Source of the DNA: Bacteroidota bacterium | GTDB taxonomy: Bacteria; Bacteroidota; Ignavibacteria; Ignavibacteriales; Ignavibacteriaceae | Length of the DNA: 64,000 bases | Direction of reading: 5' to 3' | Assembly: GCA_021813585.1 (NCBI GenBank) | Contig: JAKAJV010000015.1 | Span: 124,001 to 188,000, forward strand | In this document: one piece after another, positions 4,321 to 11,385 of the stretch | Layout: each line of letters begins with the position of its first letter | Position numbering within the stretch: position 1 is the stretch's first letter | The notes under the pieces: generated by a model | Database searches by the model: none | The model's input: the letters and a program-made list of their open reading frames with translations, nothing else | Told to the model about the DNA's origin: nothing | Position numbers and translations under genes: made by a program

Positions 4321-4901
4321 ATCTCAACAAAATTTTTTAAAAGTTTTAATCCCGTGTCGCCTGACTTTTCCGGGTGGAACTGCACTCCGTAATAATTTCC
4401 TTTTTCAAGCGAAGCTGAGAAATCGATATTGTTATTAGTTACTGCAGTAGTGAATTCATTAACCGGTACGTAATATGAATGAGCAAAGTAAAAATGCTCG
4501 CCGCTCTTTATCCCGTTGAATAGTTTGCTTTCTTTGTTTAGCTGCACCGAGTTCCAGCCCATGTGCGGTACCTTTGTTTTAGCCGGGTCGAACTTTAGCG
4601 CAGTACCGGGGAAAATTCCCAGACAAGCCACATTGCCTTCGGTGGATTGATCGGCCATAAGCTGCATGCCGAGGCAAATGCCGAGCATTGGCTTTTTCAC
4701 AATCCGCAAAACTGAAAATAAATTTAAAATGTGCAGCTGCCTTACCGCAAAGGAAGCTTCGCCGACTCCTGGAAAGATAACCTTATCCGAATTACAGATG
4801 TCTGCTTCCTTGTTTGTAATTTTAAACTCCTCTCCCAGCTTTGTTAAGGCGTTTGCAACCGAGGCCACATTACCGGCACCGTAATCAATCAGAGCTATCA
4901 T
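4317..4901 (-). CDS. hisH: HisH: imidazole glycerol phosphate synthase, glutaminase subunit
   Basis: A 194-residue class I glutamine amidotransferase that feeds ammonia to HisF. The nucleophile elbow is LGICLGMQL, with Cys in the centre. The catalytic His and Glu are in GVQFHPEKSG near the C-terminus, and the N-terminal IDYGAGN is typical of HisH. It is joined to hisB and hisA by ATGA overlaps on both sides. The pairing hisH-hisA-hisF is the common bacterial order. Confidence 0.95.
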   Translation of the reverse strand: MIALIDYGAGNVASVANALTKLGEEFKITNKEADICNSDKVIFPGVGEASFAVRQLHILNLFSVLRIVKKPMLGICLGMQLMADQSTEGNVACLGIFPGTALKFDPAKTKVPHMGWNSVQLNKESKLFNGIKSGEHFYFAHSYYVPVNEFTTAVTNNNIDFSASLEKGNYYGVQFHPEKSGDTGLKLLKNFVEI

Positions 4902-5794
4902 AACACACCCTTCGTGGAAGGCAGCACGCCTTCGTTCCTTTCATCAAGCCTGCAGGCTTCGTTTAAGGCTTTTGCAAAGGCTTTGAACATTGCCTCAATC
5001 TTATGATGATCGTTCTTGCCCGTTGCCTTAATAAAAATATTTGCCTTTAATCCCGAAGCCAAGCCTCTAAAAAATTCTTCTGTTAGTTCTGTGGGGAATT
5101 CACCGACCTTTTCTCTTTTGAACCTGCATTTAAAATTCAAATAAGATCTGCCGCCGAGATCGACTGCGCATCTTGCTATCGAGTCGTCCATCGGCAGGTA
5201 GTAACCATACCGCTTAATGCCTAGCTTGTTCCCGAGCGCCTCGTTCAGTGCTTCGCCAAGGGTTATACCCGTATCTTCAACAGTATGGTGCTCGTCTACA
5301 GCAAGATCGCCCTTAACAAAGACCGACAAGTTTATGTTTGCGTGCCTGGCAATCTGCTCTAGCATATGATCGAAAAAACCGATGCCTGTGTTGATCTTTG
5401 TTTTTCCGGTTCCGTCTAGAGAAATGTCTATATTAATTTCGGTCTCTTTGGTCTTTCTGCTTTTTGATGCCGAGCGCAGTTTGGTTAAAAGAAGATTAAC
5501 CGCTTCCTCAAAAGTATCGATCGAAGTCTGGGCTGAAACAAGTATGGAATCCTTGTTAATCTTTCTGCCGGATGAAATTGAAAATATTTTTTCAAAGTCG
5601 TCATCTTGCGATGAATTTATTTTAATTCCTTCCAATGCCAAAATCTTATTTAATTCTTCGTTTGAGTTCCAATCAAAATCTTTTACTTCGATAATAAAAT
5701 TTCTGCCGGACAGCTTTTTTAATCCGCTTATCAAACCGGAAGATACCGTAGGTTTTAATTCAAAAAAGTTTTTATCTATTGTTACTTTATACAT
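4898..5794 (-). CDS. hisB: HisB: imidazoleglycerol-phosphate dehydratase with an unusual N-terminal extension
   Basis: The C-terminal about 195 residues are a normal IGP dehydratase with the two manganese motifs, DEHHTVED and KNDHHKIEAMFKA, plus DLGGR. The first about 105 residues are extra. In enteric HisB the N-terminal domain is a HAD histidinol-phosphatase with a DxDG motif; nothing like that is present here, so the extension is a different domain. No ribosome site is visible before the ATG; the repeat element at 5813-5961 ends only 18 bases upstream. The window contains no other clear histidinol-phosphate phosphatase, so that step must be encoded elsewhere or by an unrecognised domain. 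Confidence 0.9.
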   Translation of the reverse strand: MYKVTIDKNFFELKPTVSSGLISGLKKLSGRNFIIEVKDFDWNSNEELNKILALEGIKINSSQDDDFEKIFSISSGRKINKDSILVSAQTSIDTFEEAVNLLLTKLRSASKSRKTKETEINIDISLDGTGKTKINTGIGFFDHMLEQIARHANINLSVFVKGDLAVDEHHTVEDTGITLGEALNEALGNKLGIKRYGYYLPMDDSIARCAVDLGGRSYLNFKCRFKREKVGEFPTELTEEFFRGLASGLKANIFIKATGKNDHHKIEAMFKAFAKALNEACRLDERNEGVLPSTKGVL

Positions 5795-5812
5795 AATAAA
5801 AATTTTACTTAT

Positions 5813-5961
5813 TAACTCATGTTACGCAAAATTATAAAGCTTGAGTGTCATACCCGCGAAAGCGGGTATCCAAGATGCGAAAATATGATAAAAAATGGAT
5901 TCCCACTTTCGTGGGAATGACAATGCTGACATCAAAATGTATTCCTGCGTAACATGAGTTA
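5813..5961. repeat. 149-bp nested palindromic element between hisC and hisB
   Basis: The outer inverted repeat is TAACTCATGTTACGCA at 5813-5828 against TGCGTAACATGAGTTA at 5946-5961, 16 of 16 bases. Nested inside at 5846-5922 is a second unit bounded by TGTCAT and ATGACA. It contains two hairpins, ACCCGCGAAAGCGGGT (5852-5867) and TTCCCACTTTCGTGGGAA (5900-5917). The inner unit resembles the GTCATTCCCGCGAAAGCGGGAATCC palindromes common across bacteria, which I split here as GTCATTCCCGC + GAAAGCGGGAATCC. The outer TTACGCA ends recur in the element at 29897-29996. Confidence 0.75.
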
Positions 5962-6027
5962 TTAAACATTCCTGTTAACCCAATAACCTTTCCATCTTGT
6001 ATCCTCCCTCTTCCGTCTTCCGTTTCC

Positions 6028-7095
6028 TTAAACAATCTTTTTAATTGCTTCCCAAAGAAGATCATTTTCTTCTTTATTTCCAACAGAAATTCTCAGACAG
6101 TTTTCCAGCTTAGGCTGCGTGCTTCTGTCTCTTACAATAATACCTTTGTCCGCCAGCTTCTTTTGTACTTCCTTGGCGTTGTTCAATTTAACCAGTAAAA
6201 AGTTTGCATCGGAACTATAGACCTTTATTACGCCAGCAAGGCTTTCGAGCAGATTTTTCAGACGCTCTCTTTCCTTAATAATTCCGCCTATGTACTCATT
6301 TTTTAAATTTGAATTTCTTGCTGCCGACTCCAGGGCGAATCTGGTTAAAGTATTAATATTATAAGGCGCCTTAACTTTGAAAAGTATATTTATTATTTCT
6401 TCGTTTGCGATGCAGTAGCCAAGCCGGATGCCCGCAAGCCCCCACGCCTTGGAAAAAGTCCTTAAGACTACCAGGTTCGGATAATTTTTTATTTCGTCTA
6501 TAAGGCTGCCGTCTTCCGCAAAATCTATGTACGCCTCATCAACAACGATTACCGAGTTAAATTTACTGCACAAAGTTAGCACGTCTTCCTTTGCCAATAA
6601 ATTGCCGGTGGGATTATTAGGCGAGCAGAGGAAAATTAATTTTGTATTATCCTTCAAGTTATTTTCAACCTCCGGCAAATCTACCTGGAAGTTATCGTTC
6701 AGCAAAACATTTATTGTCTCTACGTTATTTATATCGCATGCAACCTTGTACATCCCGTATGTCGGTTCTGGTATCAGCACGTTGTCTTTGCCCGGCTCGC
6801 AAAAAATTCTGATGAGAAGGTCGATTATTTCATCGGAGCCTACGCCGAAGAATAGATTTTTTTCCGGAACGGAATTAAGACCGCTAACCAGCTTTCTTAA
6901 ATCCTTCTGGTGCGGATCGGGATAACGGTTCAAACGAACGCCCTCAATGCCCGTAAATGTAGAGCCCCAGCTGTTCTCGTTCGCGTCCAGCAGAATGCCC
7001 TTATCGCTTTCATAAATGTCGCGCGCAGAGGTGTACGGATTTAAGTTTAAAATATTTTTTCTAACCAAGTTTTTGACATTCATATTTATTAACAC
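6028..7095 (-). CDS. hisC: HisC: histidinol-phosphate aminotransferase
   Basis: A PLP fold-type I aminotransferase of about 355 residues that converts imidazole-acetol phosphate to histidinol phosphate. Visible signatures are LCSPNNPTGN, VVDEAYIDF (Asp and Tyr that contact PLP), and TFSKAWGLAGIRLGY, which holds the Schiff-base lysine. The reading frame opens with a GTG at 7095, but the ATG at 7083 gives the more usual N-terminus (MNVKNLVRK). A GAGGAG site lies 3 bases before the GTG and 15 before the ATG, so the start is undecided. Flanked on both sides by palindromic elements within the operon. Confidence 0.95.
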   Translation of the reverse strand: MLINMNVKNLVRKNILNLNPYTSARDIYESDKGILLDANENSWGSTFTGIEGVRLNRYPDPHQKDLRKLVSGLNSVPEKNLFFGVGSDEIIDLLIRIFCEPGKDNVLIPEPTYGMYKVACDINNVETINVLLNDNFQVDLPEVENNLKDNTKLIFLCSPNNPTGNLLAKEDVLTLCSKFNSVIVVDEAYIDFAEDGSLIDEIKNYPNLVVLRTFSKAWGLAGIRLGYCIANEEIINILFKVKAPYNINTLTRFALESAARNSNLKNEYIGGIIKERERLKNLLESLAGVIKVYSSDANFLLVKLNNAKEVQKKLADKGIIVRDRSTQPKLENCLRISVGNKEENDLLWEAIKKIV

Positions 7096-7212: not shown

Positions 7213-8502
7213 TTATTTTAATCTTATACTCACCGCATTCTTATGCGCATCCAGGCCTTCGGTTTCTGCCAGGTTTTGAACTGCGGCTGAAATATTCTTT
7301 AATCCTTCTTTAGTTAAATTCTGAAAGGTAATCGATTTCATAAACATCTCTACCGATACTCCGCCGTAAGCTTTCGCGTAGCCGTAAGTGGGCAGCGAGT
7401 GGTTGGTGCCCGATGCATAATCGCCTGCACTTTCCGGAGAAAACTGACCTAAGAAAACAGAGCCGGCATTAGTAATTTTACCAATATATTTTTCCGGGTC
7501 TTCTATATTTAATATTAAATGTTCGGGCGCATACTTGTTGCTGAAATCGACAGCTTGCTCTACGCTGTCTGAAATTAGTATAAATGAATTCTTCAGTGCT
7601 TTCGATGCAAAGTCTTTCCTCGGCAAATTCTCCAATTGCCGGGTAACTTCCGAGTTTATCCTGTTCGCAGCTTCAGTTGAAGTAGTTACAAGGATAACCT
7701 GCGAGTCGGCGCCGTGCTCTGCCTGCGATAGCAAGTCGGCTGCGGCGAAAGAAGGATCGGCATTTTCATCTGCTATTACCAGCAGCTCGCTCGGGCCAGC
7801 AGGCATATCAATTGCACATCCCGATGAATCGGGGTCTATGCTTATTAGTAATTTTGCCGCAGTTACAAATTGGTTTCCCGGACCGAAAATCTTATTAACT
7901 TTTGGAATTGACTCGTCGCCGTAAGCCATAAGTCCGATTGCCTGCGCCCCGCCAAGCTTATAGAACTCATTTATTCCGCAAAGCCTGGCTGCATATAAAA
8001 GCGGGTAATTTATTATATTATTCTTTGACGGCGAACAGACAACAATTCTTTTACAGCCTGCAATCCCTGCAGGTATCCCCAGCATCAGCATTGTTGAGGG
8101 CAGCACCGCATTACCGCCCGGGACGTAAAGTCCCACATTATCAATCGGTCTGTATTCTCTTGAGCACTTAACTCCGCTCATCGTCTCAATTTCATATCTT
8201 TCAGGCAATTGTTTGCTATGAAATTTTTTTATGTTGTCGAACGCCGTTTTAATTGCTTCTTTTATTTTTGAATCAAGCTTCCGCTCTGCTTCATCAAGTT
8301 CCTTATCCGATACAAGAATATTTTCGCCGTCAAAACCGTCCAGCTGCCTTGCATATTTTAAAGCAGCAGGCAGTCCATTCTTCTTTACCTCGTTTAAGAT
8401 AGGCTTGACTATGCCGAAAATCTTTTCAAGATCGATTGCAGGTCTTTTAGTTAAATCTTCTGCATCCTTCCGGGAAAGATTATTTAGAAAGTAAGTTTTC
8501 AT
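7213..8502 (-). CDS. hisD: HisD: histidinol dehydrogenase
   Basis: A 429-residue zinc- and NAD-dependent enzyme that oxidises histidinol to histidine in two steps. Characteristic segments are YVPGGNAVLPSTMLML, GGAQAIGLMAYG, IFGPGNQFV, DMPAGPSE and LLSQAEHGADSQ (zinc and base residues), and YAPEHL near residue 325. Length is normal. Its start overlaps the hisG stop in an ATGA. It is followed on the mRNA by the octamer hairpin before hisC. Confidence 0.96.
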   Translation of the reverse strand: MKTYFLNNLSRKDAEDLTKRPAIDLEKIFGIVKPILNEVKKNGLPAALKYARQLDGFDGENILVSDKELDEAERKLDSKIKEAIKTAFDNIKKFHSKQLPERYEIETMSGVKCSREYRPIDNVGLYVPGGNAVLPSTMLMLGIPAGIAGCKRIVVCSPSKNNIINYPLLYAARLCGINEFYKLGGAQAIGLMAYGDESIPKVNKIFGPGNQFVTAAKLLISIDPDSSGCAIDMPAGPSELLVIADENADPSFAAADLLSQAEHGADSQVILVTTSTEAANRINSEVTRQLENLPRKDFASKALKNSFILISDSVEQAVDFSNKYAPEHLILNIEDPEKYIGKITNAGSVFLGQFSPESAGDYASGTNHSLPTYGYAKAYGGVSVEMFMKSITFQNLTKEGLKNISAAVQNLAETEGLDAHKNAVSIRLK

Positions 8503-9365
8503 TGTATCAAATTCTCTATTGGCAGTAAAAGAACTCCGGAGGCGCCGGCGGATTTTAAGTCTTCTATTATTTCCCAGAACTTATCCGATGGAATAACCGC
8601 ATGAACCGCCAGCATGTTCTCATCCGCAAGGTGCAGAACCGTAGGGCTCTTAAGAGAGGGTATTATCCCGATAATCTTATCGAGCGATTCCTTCGGAATG
8701 TTCATCATAAGGTACTTGGACGAGTGGGCGGTTTTAACCGACCTGATCCGGCGCAGAAGGTCCCTAAGTACGTCGTTCTTCCTTTCATCCTTTAGCTCTC
8801 CGGCTGCCGAGATAAGCACAGCCTGGGAATCAAAAACCTTGAAAGATTTTTTCAGCTTGTTCATCATTAGTGTGTTGCCGGTAGATACGATATCGCAGAT
8901 TAAATCGGCAACGCCTAGAGAAGGCGCAATTTCAACCGAGCCTCTTAGCTCTATTACCTTTGCGTTTAGGTTGTTCGTCCTAAGATATTCTTTTAGAATC
9001 CTGGGGTAAGTGGTTGCAATTGTTTTTTCGTTTATGTCTTCAATCTTTTTTATTTCCTTGCCTTCCGGGTAAGCGAACAGAAGGCTGCACCTGCCGAAGC
9101 CCAGCTTTTCTAGTATAAGAGACTGCGTCTGTTTTTCGGATACAACGTTCTCACCCACGATGCCGATGTCAGCAACACCGTCCTGCACGTACTCAGGTAT
9201 ATCGTCGTCTCTAAGAAATAAAATATCCATGGGAAAATTTCTTACGGAAACAACAAGCCGCTCGGAATAGTTTTCTATATCCAAGCCGCACAAGCTTAAA
9301 AGCTCAAGGGATTTTTCCGTCAGCCTTCCTTTTTTCTGCAAAGCCAACTTTAAATTACCGCTCAT
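8499..9365 (-). CDS. hisG: HisG: ATP phosphoribosyltransferase, long form
   Basis: A 288-residue first and committed enzyme of histidine synthesis. The N-terminal KLALQKKGRLTEKS and GVADIGIVGENVV are substrate-binding segments, and the PRPP loop is in ICDIVSTGNTL. The last about 75 residues (KYLMMNIPKESL to GVLLLP) form the C-terminal regulatory domain that binds histidine for feedback inhibition, so no HisZ is needed. AAAGGAAG lies 6 bases before the ATG. It is the first structural gene after the leader peptide and attenuator hairpin. Confidence 0.96.
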   Translation of the reverse strand: MSGNLKLALQKKGRLTEKSLELLSLCGLDIENYSERLVVSVRNFPMDILFLRDDDIPEYVQDGVADIGIVGENVVSEKQTQSLILEKLGFGRCSLLFAYPEGKEIKKIEDINEKTIATTYPRILKEYLRTNNLNAKVIELRGSVEIAPSLGVADLICDIVSTGNTLMMNKLKKSFKVFDSQAVLISAAGELKDERKNDVLRDLLRRIRSVKTAHSSKYLMMNIPKESLDKIIGIIPSLKSPTVLHLADENMLAVHAVIPSDKFWEIIEDLKSAGASGVLLLPIENLIQ

Positions 9366-9385: not shown

Positions 9386-9409
9386 AAAAACCCCGGTATC
9401 TGCCGGGGT
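9386..9409 (-). terminator. Attenuator terminator of the his operon
   Basis: Read on the minus strand, ACCCCGG (9409-9403) pairs with CCGGGGT (9396-9390) around the loop CAGATA, a 7-bp GC-rich stem followed by TTTTTGCTTTT. It lies between the leader peptide stop and hisG, 20 bases before the hisG start. The 5' arm CCGGCA can pair instead with TGCCGG in leader codons 18-20, which would block the terminator. Confidence 0.85.
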
Positions 9410-9433
9410 GACGATTTCGCTTAATTTTACGGC

Positions 9434-9502
9434 TCAATACAATCCGGCAAGATAGTTGAATACCTCGTGATGATGATGGATTGTATGGGCTTTGTTATAC
9501 AT
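9434..9502 (-). CDS. hisL: His operon leader peptide
   Basis: A 22-codon reading frame on the minus strand, ATG at 9502 and TGA at 9436-9434. Codon 6 and codons 9-12 are histidine (the core reads AHTIHHHHEVF). It is followed by a rho-independent hairpin and then hisG. In the classic attenuation model, shortage of charged His-tRNA stalls the ribosome at codons 9-12 and leaves TGCCGG (codons 18-20) free to capture the 5' arm of the terminator; with ample histidine the ribosome reaches the stop, covers that segment, and the terminator forms. The ribosome site is AT-rich and weak, as is common in this phylum. Five His codons in 22 beside hisG make chance very unlikely. Confidence 0.9.
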   Translation of the reverse strand: MYNKAHTIHHHHEVFNYLAGLY

Positions 9503-9534
9503 TTTTATTTTAAAGTCATTTATTAAAAGCACTG

Positions 9535-9564
9535 CAAATTTATAGAAAATTAGTCACAATTCAA
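9535..9564 (-). promoter_or_regulatory. Predicted his operon promoter (Bacteroidetes-type)
   Basis: On the minus strand TTG at 9564-9562 is followed after 19 bases by TAAATTTG at 9542-9535. This matches the TTG-N(17-23)-TAnnTTTG consensus of primary promoters in Bacteroidetes and relatives. The start of transcription would be near 9529, leaving about 27 bases before the hisL ATG. Position and match support it, but no experiment is implied. Confidence 0.6.
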
Positions 9565-10041
9565 ATAACGCGTTAGATACAGCATAGCGCGGCAAACCGC
9601 AATTCAAAATTAAGAATGAAAAATTAAAAATTGAAGACACTTAAAATATCTTGACGCAAAAAATCCCGAAGGGATCACAATGTGACAAAAATTTAATTGG
9701 CAATACTATAATGTTAACCTTAAATACATTTCCATAGATTAAGCAAGTACCCATTTAGGATTTGTTTCCGGCTTCTGTCTCTTCGGCTTACGGCTTCAAT
9801 TAACCTATTGCAAGAAAAATTTTTTATTGCCTTTGGAATATTTAATTTCTAATTTACCGGCGGATTCAAATTGTTTCCGGTTATTCATTCCGGGCAATCA
9901 GAGCAGTTTAATACGGGAAAGTTTTTTTTTCTTCAAGCTGCCAAATAATCCCGGATATCCTCCTGAACATACTTAAGCGGCAGTATTCTTCAAACAGATC
10001 AGATTTTTTTATCAATACCAACAAATATATTGGGAGGAACT
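9565..10041. other. Intergenic region between the his promoter and the next plus-strand gene
   Basis: About 480 bases, AT-rich, with no convincing reading frame. It holds a small hairpin ATCCCGAAGGGAT (9663-9675) and the segments AATATCTTGACGCAAAAAA (9645-9663) and GCAATACTATAAT (9700-9712), both of which recur in the same order at 33733-33778. The ribosome site GGGAGG of the next gene is at the end. Confidence 0.5.
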
Positions 10042-11385
10042 ATGAAACGTGTGTACATTTTTATTTTGCTGGCTCTGGTCTTAAGCAATACGCCGTTCCT
10101 GCATTCGCAAATTAGAAATATCGCTTCAATAAAGGGTACGTGGACGGGCCAGTGGGTGAATAATTTCTATCATTCAAGCGGTTTCATTTCTGTTAATATT
10201 ACCGTAGATCAGGTTAATAAAACTGCTCACGGGGACTGGAACGTTGGAGGAAATATACTTGGACAGCCGAGGTTGCCTTTTTCTACGGATATAACATTGA
10301 ACGATAGCGGATTTGTCGCATCGTTTTATTCTTCTATTTGGGGAAACATATCGGGTTCCGGTTTATATACCGGCGGCTATTCGGGCACTGCGGCAAATTG
10401 CCCGAATCCGAATGCAACAAGCATAGCGGCGGTCGGCAGTTTTAATAGCCGGCAAATAAACGGCACATTCACTTTTATATGGCTGCCTGCCGGTTCAAGC
10501 CCGATAAACGGGACGGTAACCATTACAAAGCAGAATCCGATTAACGATCCCACCAATCTTACTGTTAGCCAAGCTGCTAGCGGTGCTGCTAATTTAAATT
10601 GGAATGATAATGCATCGAACGAGACCGGGTACAGAATTGAAAGAAAAAATTCCAATACCGGAATATGGAGCCAAATAGCTACTGTCGGGCCGAATTCTAA
10701 TGCCTACACAGATAACAGCGTTATGGCCGATACACCATATGTTTATCGGGTCGCTGCATTCAATACTTATACCGAATCTGAATACAGCCAGGAGGCCGCC
10801 TATAAAACTTTAATTCCCGTCGAGCTTATCTCTTTTGATTATGCTTTAAATGAAAACGGAATACGGCTTAACTGGGTAACTGCAACGGAGAAGAACAACA
10901 AATGTTTCGAGATAGACAGGAAGCTGGAGAATTTCGGCTGGGTAAAGATTGGAATTGTGCCGGGCAGCGGAACTACGACCGAGAAATCTTATTACAGGTT
11001 TACAGATGGGCTAAAAAATGTTTCGCTTACAGGGGCAATCAAATACCGGCTGAAGCAAATTGATTTTGACGGCACGGTTGGCTATTCGCAGGAGATTGAT
11101 ATAGACGCCGGCAAAATATTATCCGGCTATTCCATCAGTCAGAATTTTCCCAATCCTTTCAACCCGGTAACAACAATCGACTATCAGCTGCCAGTAAGCG
11201 GGTTTGTTGTTTTAAGGGTATTTGATATCTGCGGCAATGAAGTCAATACGCTGGTTAAAGAGTATAAGCCTGCCGGCAGATATTCAATTAACTTCGATGC
11301 TTCTAGCCTGTCAAGCGGCGTATACCTTTACCGTCTGCAGGCCGGTCTTTTTAATTCTACTAAGAAGCTGGTAGTATTAAAATAA
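10042..11385 (+). CDS. Exported fibronectin-type III protein with T9SS sorting domain
   Basis: A 447-residue surface or secreted protein. The ATG at 10042 follows GGGAGG by 4-5 bases. A signal peptide (KRVYIFILLALVLSNTPFLHS) is followed by a beta-rich region of about 140 residues, then a fibronectin III domain (about 170-255: DPTNLTVSQ, NLNWNDNASNETGYRIERK, YVYRVAAFN), and a second beta segment starting PVELISFDY. The last about 80 residues are a type A T9SS sorting domain (SQNFPNPFNPVTTIDYQL to YLYRLQAG...KLVVLK). It is thus predicted to cross the outer membrane by T9SS. Function of the N-terminal part unknown. Confidence 0.85.
   Translation: MKRVYIFILLALVLSNTPFLHSQIRNIASIKGTWTGQWVNNFYHSSGFISVNITVDQVNKTAHGDWNVGGNILGQPRLPFSTDITLNDSGFVASFYSSIWGNISGSGLYTGGYSGTAANCPNPNATSIAAVGSFNSRQINGTFTFIWLPAGSSPINGTVTITKQNPINDPTNLTVSQAASGAANLNWNDNASNETGYRIERKNSNTGIWSQIATVGPNSNAYTDNSVMADTPYVYRVAAFNTYTESEYSQEAAYKTLIPVELISFDYALNENGIRLNWVTATEKNNKCFEIDRKLENFGWVKIGIVPGSGTTTEKSYYRFTDGLKNVSLTGAIKYRLKQIDFDGTVGYSQEIDIDAGKILSGYSISQNFPNPFNPVTTIDYQLPVSGFVVLRVFDICGNEVNTLVKEYKPAGRYSINFDASSLSSGVYLYRLQAGLFNSTKKLVVLK

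What the first reader, a model, noticed from the sequence alone, without database searches (positions are those of the whole stretch)
9386..9564. Histidine-codon attenuator with leader peptide in an Ignavibacteria-like genome
A 22-codon leader with His at codon 6 and 9-12, a terminator before hisG, an alternative TGCCGG/CCGGCA pairing placed where a stalled ribosome would free it, and a Bacteroidetes-type promoter 27 bases before the leader. Ribosome-mediated his attenuation is best known from Proteobacteria; here the logic is simplified to one antiterminator and one terminator.
Basis: partly seen in the sequence, partly recalled or inferred. Interest (0 to 1): 0.7.

Follow-up and report, generated by a model that had tools for sequence, protein, structure and literature searches.

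The report
Histidine-sensing attenuator before the his operon
The DNA just before this bacterium's histidine-making genes encodes a tiny histidine-rich peptide and an RNA on/off switch, so that a ribosome running short of histidine should turn the genes on; it is the classic switch known from E. coli, found here intact and conserved throughout the Ignavibacteriales, a poorly studied, mostly uncultured group.

Summary
The finding holds up. On the minus strand, upstream of a complete hisGDCBHAFI(E) operon, lie a TTTG-N19-TAAATTTG promoter, a 22-codon leader MYNKAHTIHHHHEVFNYLAGLY (His at codons 6 and 9-12), and a GC-rich hairpin followed by U's, 20 nt before hisG. Fifty-six of 56 distinct Ignavibacteriales hisG upstream regions carry a His-run leader (1.5% of shuffles do), and a terminator follows it in all 56 (3 with one imperfect pair). 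The antiterminator (2:3) is far stronger than shuffles, and its two strands co-evolve (0 of 10,000 permutations). One detail is wrong: the logic is not simplified. A third, mutually exclusive helix (1:2, the protector) is present and also co-evolves, so this is the full classical three-state attenuator. Folding with ribosome footprints masked gives the expected states: no ribosome, terminator; stalled on His codons, antiterminator; ribosome at the stop codon, terminator. The same genome has a Trp leader before trpE, as do all 27 Ignavibacteriales trpE regions examined. His leaders also precede hisG in 45 of 60 regions sampled across the phylum, so this is not peculiar to Ignavibacteria. Verdict: a very well supported new member of a known kind. 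No experiment has been done.

The parts
9562..9565 (-). promoter -33 element TTTG
   Evidence: sequence; 19 nt from the -7 element; 29 of 56 relatives have TTTG-N17-23-TAnnTTTG upstream of the leader, 0.2 expected
9535..9542 (-). promoter -7 element TAAATTTG (TAnnTTTG)
   Evidence: sequence; TAnnTTTG within 75 nt of the leader start in 36 of 56 relatives against 4.5 expected
9434..9502 (-). leader peptide gene (proposed hisL), 22 codons, MYNKAHTIHHHHEVFNYLAGLY*
   Evidence: His-run leader in 56 of 56 relatives
9485..9487 (-). His codon 6 (CAT)
   Evidence: sequence
9467..9478 (-). regulatory His codons 9-12 (CATCATCATCAC)
   Evidence: sequence
9478..9486 (-). strand 1 (ATACAATCC), 5' arm of the protector helix 1:2
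   Evidence: fold; swap test 0 of 10000
9437..9445 (-). 3' part of strand 2 (GGATTGTAT), pairs with strand 1
   Evidence: fold
9444..9454 (-). strand 2 (TATCTTGCCGG), antiterminator 5' arm, inside leader codons 17-20
9397..9406 (-). strand 3 (CCGGCAGATA), antiterminator 3' arm overlapping the terminator 5' arm and loop
9390..9409 (-). intrinsic terminator hairpin 3:4 (ACCCCGG CAGATA CCGGGGT)
   Evidence: terminator in all 56 relatives, 53 with a perfect stem
9386..9390 (-). T-tract of the terminator
   Evidence: sequence
8499..9365 (-). hisG, first gene of the controlled operon (long form with C-terminal regulatory domain)
   Evidence: TIGR00070 and TIGR03455
7213..8502 (-). hisD
   Evidence: TIGR00069
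6028..7095 (-). hisC
   Evidence: TIGR01141
4898..5794 (-). hisB (imidazoleglycerol-phosphate dehydratase with an N-terminal extension)
   Evidence: NCBIfam HisB models and PF00475
4317..4901 (-). hisH
   Evidence: TIGR01855
3601..4320 (-). hisA
   Evidence: TIGR00007
2853..3620 (-). hisF
   Evidence: TIGR00735
2023..2637 (-). hisIE
   Evidence: NF002747

Best explanation
This is a classical ribosome-mediated transcription attenuator of the his operon. RNA polymerase starts about 26 nt before a 22-codon leader and a ribosome follows it. When charged tRNA-His is scarce, the ribosome stalls on His codons 9-12. It then covers strand 1 but leaves strand 2 (codons 17-20) free, so strand 2 pairs with strand 3 before strand 4 is made, the terminator cannot form, and hisG and the genes after it are transcribed. 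When histidine is plentiful, the ribosome reaches the stop codon and covers strand 2, so the 3:4 terminator forms and transcription stops 20 nt before hisG. If the leader is not translated, the 1:2 helix captures strand 2 and the terminator forms again. Shown here by sequence and comparative statistics: the leader, the codon run, the three exclusive helices, their co-evolution and their spacing. Inferred: promoter activity, leader translation, stalling, and the response to histidine.
For: His-run leader in 56 of 56 distinct Ignavibacteriales hisG upstream regions, against 1.5% of shuffles. Terminator downstream of the leader in all 56, 53 with perfect stems. Antiterminator 2:3 mean -13.4 kcal/mol against -7.3 for shuffles, 85% of species individually at p<=0.05. 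Swapping strands between species weakens 2:3 (-13.4 own, -11.65 sd 0.29 swapped, 0 of 10000 as good) and 1:2 (-13.9 own, -10.4 sd 0.35 swapped, 0 of 10000). Strand 2 sits at a tighter distance from the last His codon (20.6 sd 3.4 nt) than from the stop codon (8.9 sd 5.6), as sensing by stalling at His requires. Ribosome-mask folding of the window's own RNA: no ribosome, P(1:2)=1.00 and P(terminator)=0.96; A site at His codons 9-12 before strand 4 is made, P(2:3)=0.92; ribosome at the stop, P(terminator)=0.98. A complete his operon follows. A Trp leader with terminator precedes trpE in the same genome; all 27 Ignavibacteriales trpE regions examined have a Trp leader, 26 with a terminator.
Against: No expression, ribosome-profiling or 3'-end data. 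At equilibrium with strand 4 already made, the terminator still competes with the antiterminator (P(2:3) 0.18-0.45), so the switch must rely on folding during transcription, as in known attenuators. The 1:2 helix is individually significant in only 45% of relatives. More distant genomes lack the leader: two MAGs labelled Ignavibacteriae (L091, L108), one member of the window's own family by the tool's kinship (L134) and some same-class families.
Confidence: 0.93

Rival explanations
1. The leader senses His but acts mainly on translation (hisG ribosome-binding site access) or through Rho, and the hairpin is secondary.
For: Some Bacteroidota (Sphingobacteriaceae and family f27) have His leaders without an intrinsic terminator, so other read-outs may exist in the phylum.
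Against: In Ignavibacteriales a GC-rich hairpin followed by U's is present in all 56 regions and its 5' arm is the strand that co-evolves with the leader. The hisG Shine-Dalgarno-like AAAGGAAG lies downstream of the hairpin and its T-tract, outside all three alternative helices.
Confidence: 0.04
2. A chance His-rich small ORF next to an ordinary terminator of another transcript.
For: Short ORFs and terminators are common; 12 of 982 260-nt stretches of the window have an ORF with 3 His in 7 codons and one has 5.
Against: Conservation in 56 of 56 relatives with co-evolving strands. No convincing minus-strand gene lies between 9366 and 11431 that this terminator could serve (the only minus-strand ORF of 80 codons or more there, 10377-10655, is antisense to a larger plus-strand ORF).
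Confidence: 0.01
3. A T-box, riboswitch or known structured RNA family controls hisG here.
For: T-boxes control his genes in some Firmicutes (PMC9413887).
Against: No Rfam family reaches its gathering score in the window or in 12 hisG loci; a permissive scan of the leader lists neither T-box nor His_leader.
Confidence: 0.01

Closest known systems
his operon attenuator of enterobacteria (Rfam His_leader; E. coli/Salmonella hisL)
   Same: Leader peptide with a run of His codons; mutually exclusive 1:2, 2:3 and 3:4 helices; intrinsic terminator before hisG; same operon controlled (the enteric details are textbook knowledge, outlined in PMC9413887).
   Different: No sequence or structure similarity detectable by Rfam. 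3-6 His codons in the leader instead of 7 in a row (the 7 is from memory), and a Bacteroidetes-type promoter.
His-leader attenuators predicted in Firmicutes (Bacillus cereus group, Eubacteriales, Erysipelotrichales; PMC9413887) and before hisS/hisZ in bacilli (PMC2965389)
   Same: Comparative-genomic prediction of a leader with 3-5 His codons in a row, terminator and antiterminator upstream of his genes.
   Different: Other phylum; those were found in 17 genomes, whereas here the element is near-universal in an order and widespread in the phylum.
Bacteroid-trp RNA motif of Bacteroidetes (Rfam RF01692; listed in PMC2864571 as cis-regulatory, not a riboswitch)
   Same: Leader RNA upstream of trp genes (association known from memory) in the same superphylum; comparable to the Trp leader found here before trpE.
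   Different: A different amino acid; the window genome's own trpE leader did not match it at E<=0.5.
Lopatovskaya, Seliverstov and Lyubetsky 2010 (Mol Biol 44:128), comparative genomics of attenuation in bacteria
   Same: From memory and by its title, a survey of classical attenuation across bacterial groups that may already include Bacteroidetes his or trp operons.
   Different: Not held in the library, so it could not be checked; few Ignavibacteria genomes existed at that date (from memory).

Membership tests
Classical ribosome-mediated amino-acid attenuator | short leader ORF with a run of codons for the operon's end product | tested here: met
   His at codons 6 and 9-12; 56 of 56 relatives
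Classical ribosome-mediated amino-acid attenuator | intrinsic terminator between leader and first structural gene | tested here: met
   9409-9386; all 56 relatives
Classical ribosome-mediated amino-acid attenuator | mutually exclusive antiterminator (2:3) placed beyond the footprint of a ribosome stalled at the regulatory codons | tested here: met
Classical ribosome-mediated amino-acid attenuator | protector helix 1:2 that favours termination without translation | tested here: met
   P(1:2)=1.00 in the full leader; swap test 0 of 10000; individually significant in 45% of relatives
Classical ribosome-mediated amino-acid attenuator | controls the cognate biosynthetic operon | tested here: met
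   hisG, D, C, B, H, A, F and IE follow on the same strand; met by position, expression not tested
Classical ribosome-mediated amino-acid attenuator | termination responds to tRNA charging in vivo and needs leader translation | not testable with these tools
   no expression data
Rfam His_leader family (homology) | match to the covariance model | tested here: not met
   no match at gathering score or at E<=10
T-box riboswitch | match to the T-box model | tested here: not met
   no match

The most novel reading that the evidence does not exclude
His-sensing leader peptides upstream of hisG are an old, near-universal device of the Bacteroidota/Ignavibacteriota group that has diversified its read-out: a classical terminator/antiterminator in Ignavibacteriales and many families, and a terminator-less version in Sphingobacteriaceae and family f27 (in Sphingobacteriaceae, a hairpin formed by the end of the leader plus a near-invariant TGTTTCTACGTGAAA-type element) that works by another, undescribed route such as Rho or translational control.
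Probability: 0.35. Interest if true: 0.6.

Novelty: new member of a known kind. Interest (0 to 1): 0.4.

Why it matters
It places coupled transcription-translation and textbook amino-acid attenuation in a mostly uncultured lineage for which I found no published attenuator in the library, and shows that His (and Trp) leaders there are the rule rather than the exception. That bears on whether leader-peptide attenuation is ancient or has arisen repeatedly, and it gives about 56 natural variants of one switch for studying how such switches evolve.

Tried and rejected
Rfam scans of the window and relatives gave no relevant family. Folding the plus strand first was the wrong strand. leuA in the same genome shows no Leu leader, only a repeat palindrome. 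Other CATCATCATCAT sites in the genome do not look like leaders (by eye only). A strict perfect-stem terminator finder missed L016, L017 and L019, which have one imperfect pair. Permutation tests treat species as independent; swaps between close relatives make the swapped score better, not worse, so this should not inflate the result. The 60-region phylum sample was hand-picked from listed hisG hits and leans towards closer HisG types, so 45 of 60 is not an unbiased frequency. A hand-made structure count on alignment A1 failed on length and was replaced by the alifold run, which predicts only the leader-end hairpin, with little covariation.

Full report
Observation. The feature is on the minus strand. 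Reading 5' to 3': TTTG (9565-9562), a 19-nt spacer, TAAATTTG (9542-9535), then ATG at 9502 opening a 22-codon ORF, MYNKAHTIHHHHEVFNYLAGLY, that stops at 9434. It is followed by a perfect 7-pair hairpin, ACCCCGG CAGATA CCGGGGT (9409-9390), with TTTTT, and hisG starts at 9365. Downstream on the same strand lie hisG, hisD, hisC, hisB, hisH, hisA, hisF and hisIE.

Is it more than chance? None of 2000 dinucleotide shuffles of the window's own upstream region produced four His codons within seven codons of a small ORF, and 7 produced three. The nearest relatives settle it. HisG was searched in 59 related genomes and in a genome collection, giving 56 distinct upstream regions from HisG at least about 60% identical. 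All 56 have a small ORF with at least three His codons within seven, against 1.5% of shuffles. The leader peptides differ widely apart from the His run and the codons that form strand 2 (typically ...AGLY...AGLC...CRR), the pattern expected if only the codons and the RNA pairing are selected.

Alternative structures. A terminator lies between leader and hisG in all 56 regions; 53 have a perfect stem by a strict rule and three (L016, L017, L019) have one imperfect pair. For the 53, the RNA just after the His run pairs with the 5' arm of the terminator at a mean of -13.4 kcal/mol, against -7.3 for shuffles, and 85% are individually at or below p=0.05. The sequences change together, for example TGCCGG/CCGGCA in the window, GTGTCGG/CCGACAC in L018, TTTGTACCGGT/CCCGGTACAA in L074 and AAGGCGCCGGT/CCCGGCGCTT in L026. 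Pairing each species' strand 2 with another species' strand 3 weakens the helix: own mean -13.43, permuted -11.65 with sd 0.29, none of 10,000 permutations as good. The centre of strand 2 lies 20.6 (sd 3.4) nt after the last His codon, a tighter distance than that to the stop codon (8.9, sd 5.6). In some species (such as L064 and L065) the stop codon even comes before strand 2. The element thus keeps its distance to the His codons, as stalling-based sensing needs, and strand 2 stays within reach of a ribosome sitting at the stop codon.

The third helix. In the window, ATACAATCC (9486-9478) pairs with GGATTGTAT (9445-9437), the latter overlapping strand 2. Across relatives this 1:2 helix averages -13.9 kcal/mol against -10.4 (sd 0.35) when strands are swapped between species, again none of 10,000, although it is individually significant in only 45% of species. 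So the classical three-state arrangement is present.

Model of the switch. The window's own RNA was folded with the part covered by a ribosome removed. Without a ribosome, 1:2 forms (P=1.00) and the terminator forms (P=0.96). With the A site at any of His codons 9-12, and RNA made only as far as the terminator loop, the antiterminator forms at P=0.92. With the ribosome at the stop codon the terminator forms at P=0.98. Once strand 4 is complete, equilibrium shifts back towards the terminator (P(2:3) 0.18-0.45), so the switch is expected to be kinetic. The footprint (15 nt from the first base of the A site) is an assumption.

Promoter. In 29 of 56 relatives TTTG lies 17-23 nt before TAnnTTTG upstream of the leader, 22 of them at 19 nt as in the window, with 0.2 expected. 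This fits the Bacteroidetes promoter consensus (from memory), but no start site has been mapped.

Breadth. The same genome has a leader MKDITGTYYLANNLYGQNNWWWYSMQNNMTQ and a terminator before trpE. All 27 Ignavibacteriales trpE upstream regions examined have a Trp-cluster leader, and 26 have a terminator. Upstream regions of hisG from across the phylum (60, hand-picked and fetched) have His leaders in 45 cases, in 17 of 23 families, against 3 of 60 on the antisense strand and 4% of shuffles. Many of these also have terminators. Sphingobacteriaceae and family f27 have the leader but no intrinsic terminator; Sphingobacteriaceae carry a leader-end hairpin and a near-invariant TGTTTCTACGTGAAA-type element. 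Some genomes lack any leader, including two MAGs named Ignavibacteriae with distant HisG (L091, L108), one member of the window's family (L134) and several same-class families.

Known or new. By mechanism this is a classical His attenuator. It is not a member of the Rfam His_leader family by homology. Published comparative work describes His attenuators in Proteobacteria and some Firmicutes (PMC9413887, PMC2965389), and a trp-associated leader motif in Bacteroidetes is in Rfam (PMC2864571). A study of his genes across Bacteroidota and Chlorobiota, including Ignavibacterium, mentions attenuation only for enterobacteria (PMC8305728). I found no paper in the library describing this element in Ignavibacteria or Bacteroidota, but Lopatovskaya et al. 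2010 could not be read and may contain Bacteroidetes cases. I therefore file it as a new member of a known kind.

What is shown and what is inferred. Shown: the anatomy, its conservation, and the co-evolution of both alternative helices. Inferred: promoter use, leader translation, stalling, termination, and the response to histidine.

Noticed in passing
L114 (window genome, contig C88, upstream of trpE) and L185-L210: Trp leader peptides (2 to 4 Trp within six codons) with a terminator before trpE: 27 of 27 Ignavibacteriales have the leader, 26 also the terminator.
   Followed up: partly
L079-L111, about 55-130 bases before hisG; alignment A1: In Mucilaginibacter, Pedobacter and relatives a His-rich leader precedes hisG without an intrinsic terminator; instead there is a CATCGCC/GGCGATA hairpin at the leader end and a near-invariant TGTTTCTACGTGAAA-type element. 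The read-out is unknown.
   Followed up: partly
L146-L151, L184 (family f27): A second clade with very His-rich leaders (for example HHLGHHHHGSHEHVVH) before hisG and no intrinsic terminator.
   Followed up: no
L078, L098: Two bins labelled Parcubacteria/Patescibacteria have hisG with a His leader and terminator; they resemble each other, and either misbinning or true presence is possible.
   Followed up: no
window 4898-5794 (-): HisB has an N-terminal extension of about 105 residues before the dehydratase domain that matches no Pfam family.
   Followed up: partly
window 5809-5965: A 20-nt inverted repeat (95% complementary, 117 nt apart) between hisC and hisB looks like a small miniature-transposon-type insertion in the operon.
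   Followed up: no
window 5832-6083 and L112 upstream of leuA: A repeat coding in one frame for VIPTKVGIH...RFRGYD, seen between hisC and hisB and again in similar form before leuA, resembles a dispersed REP-like element.
   Followed up: no
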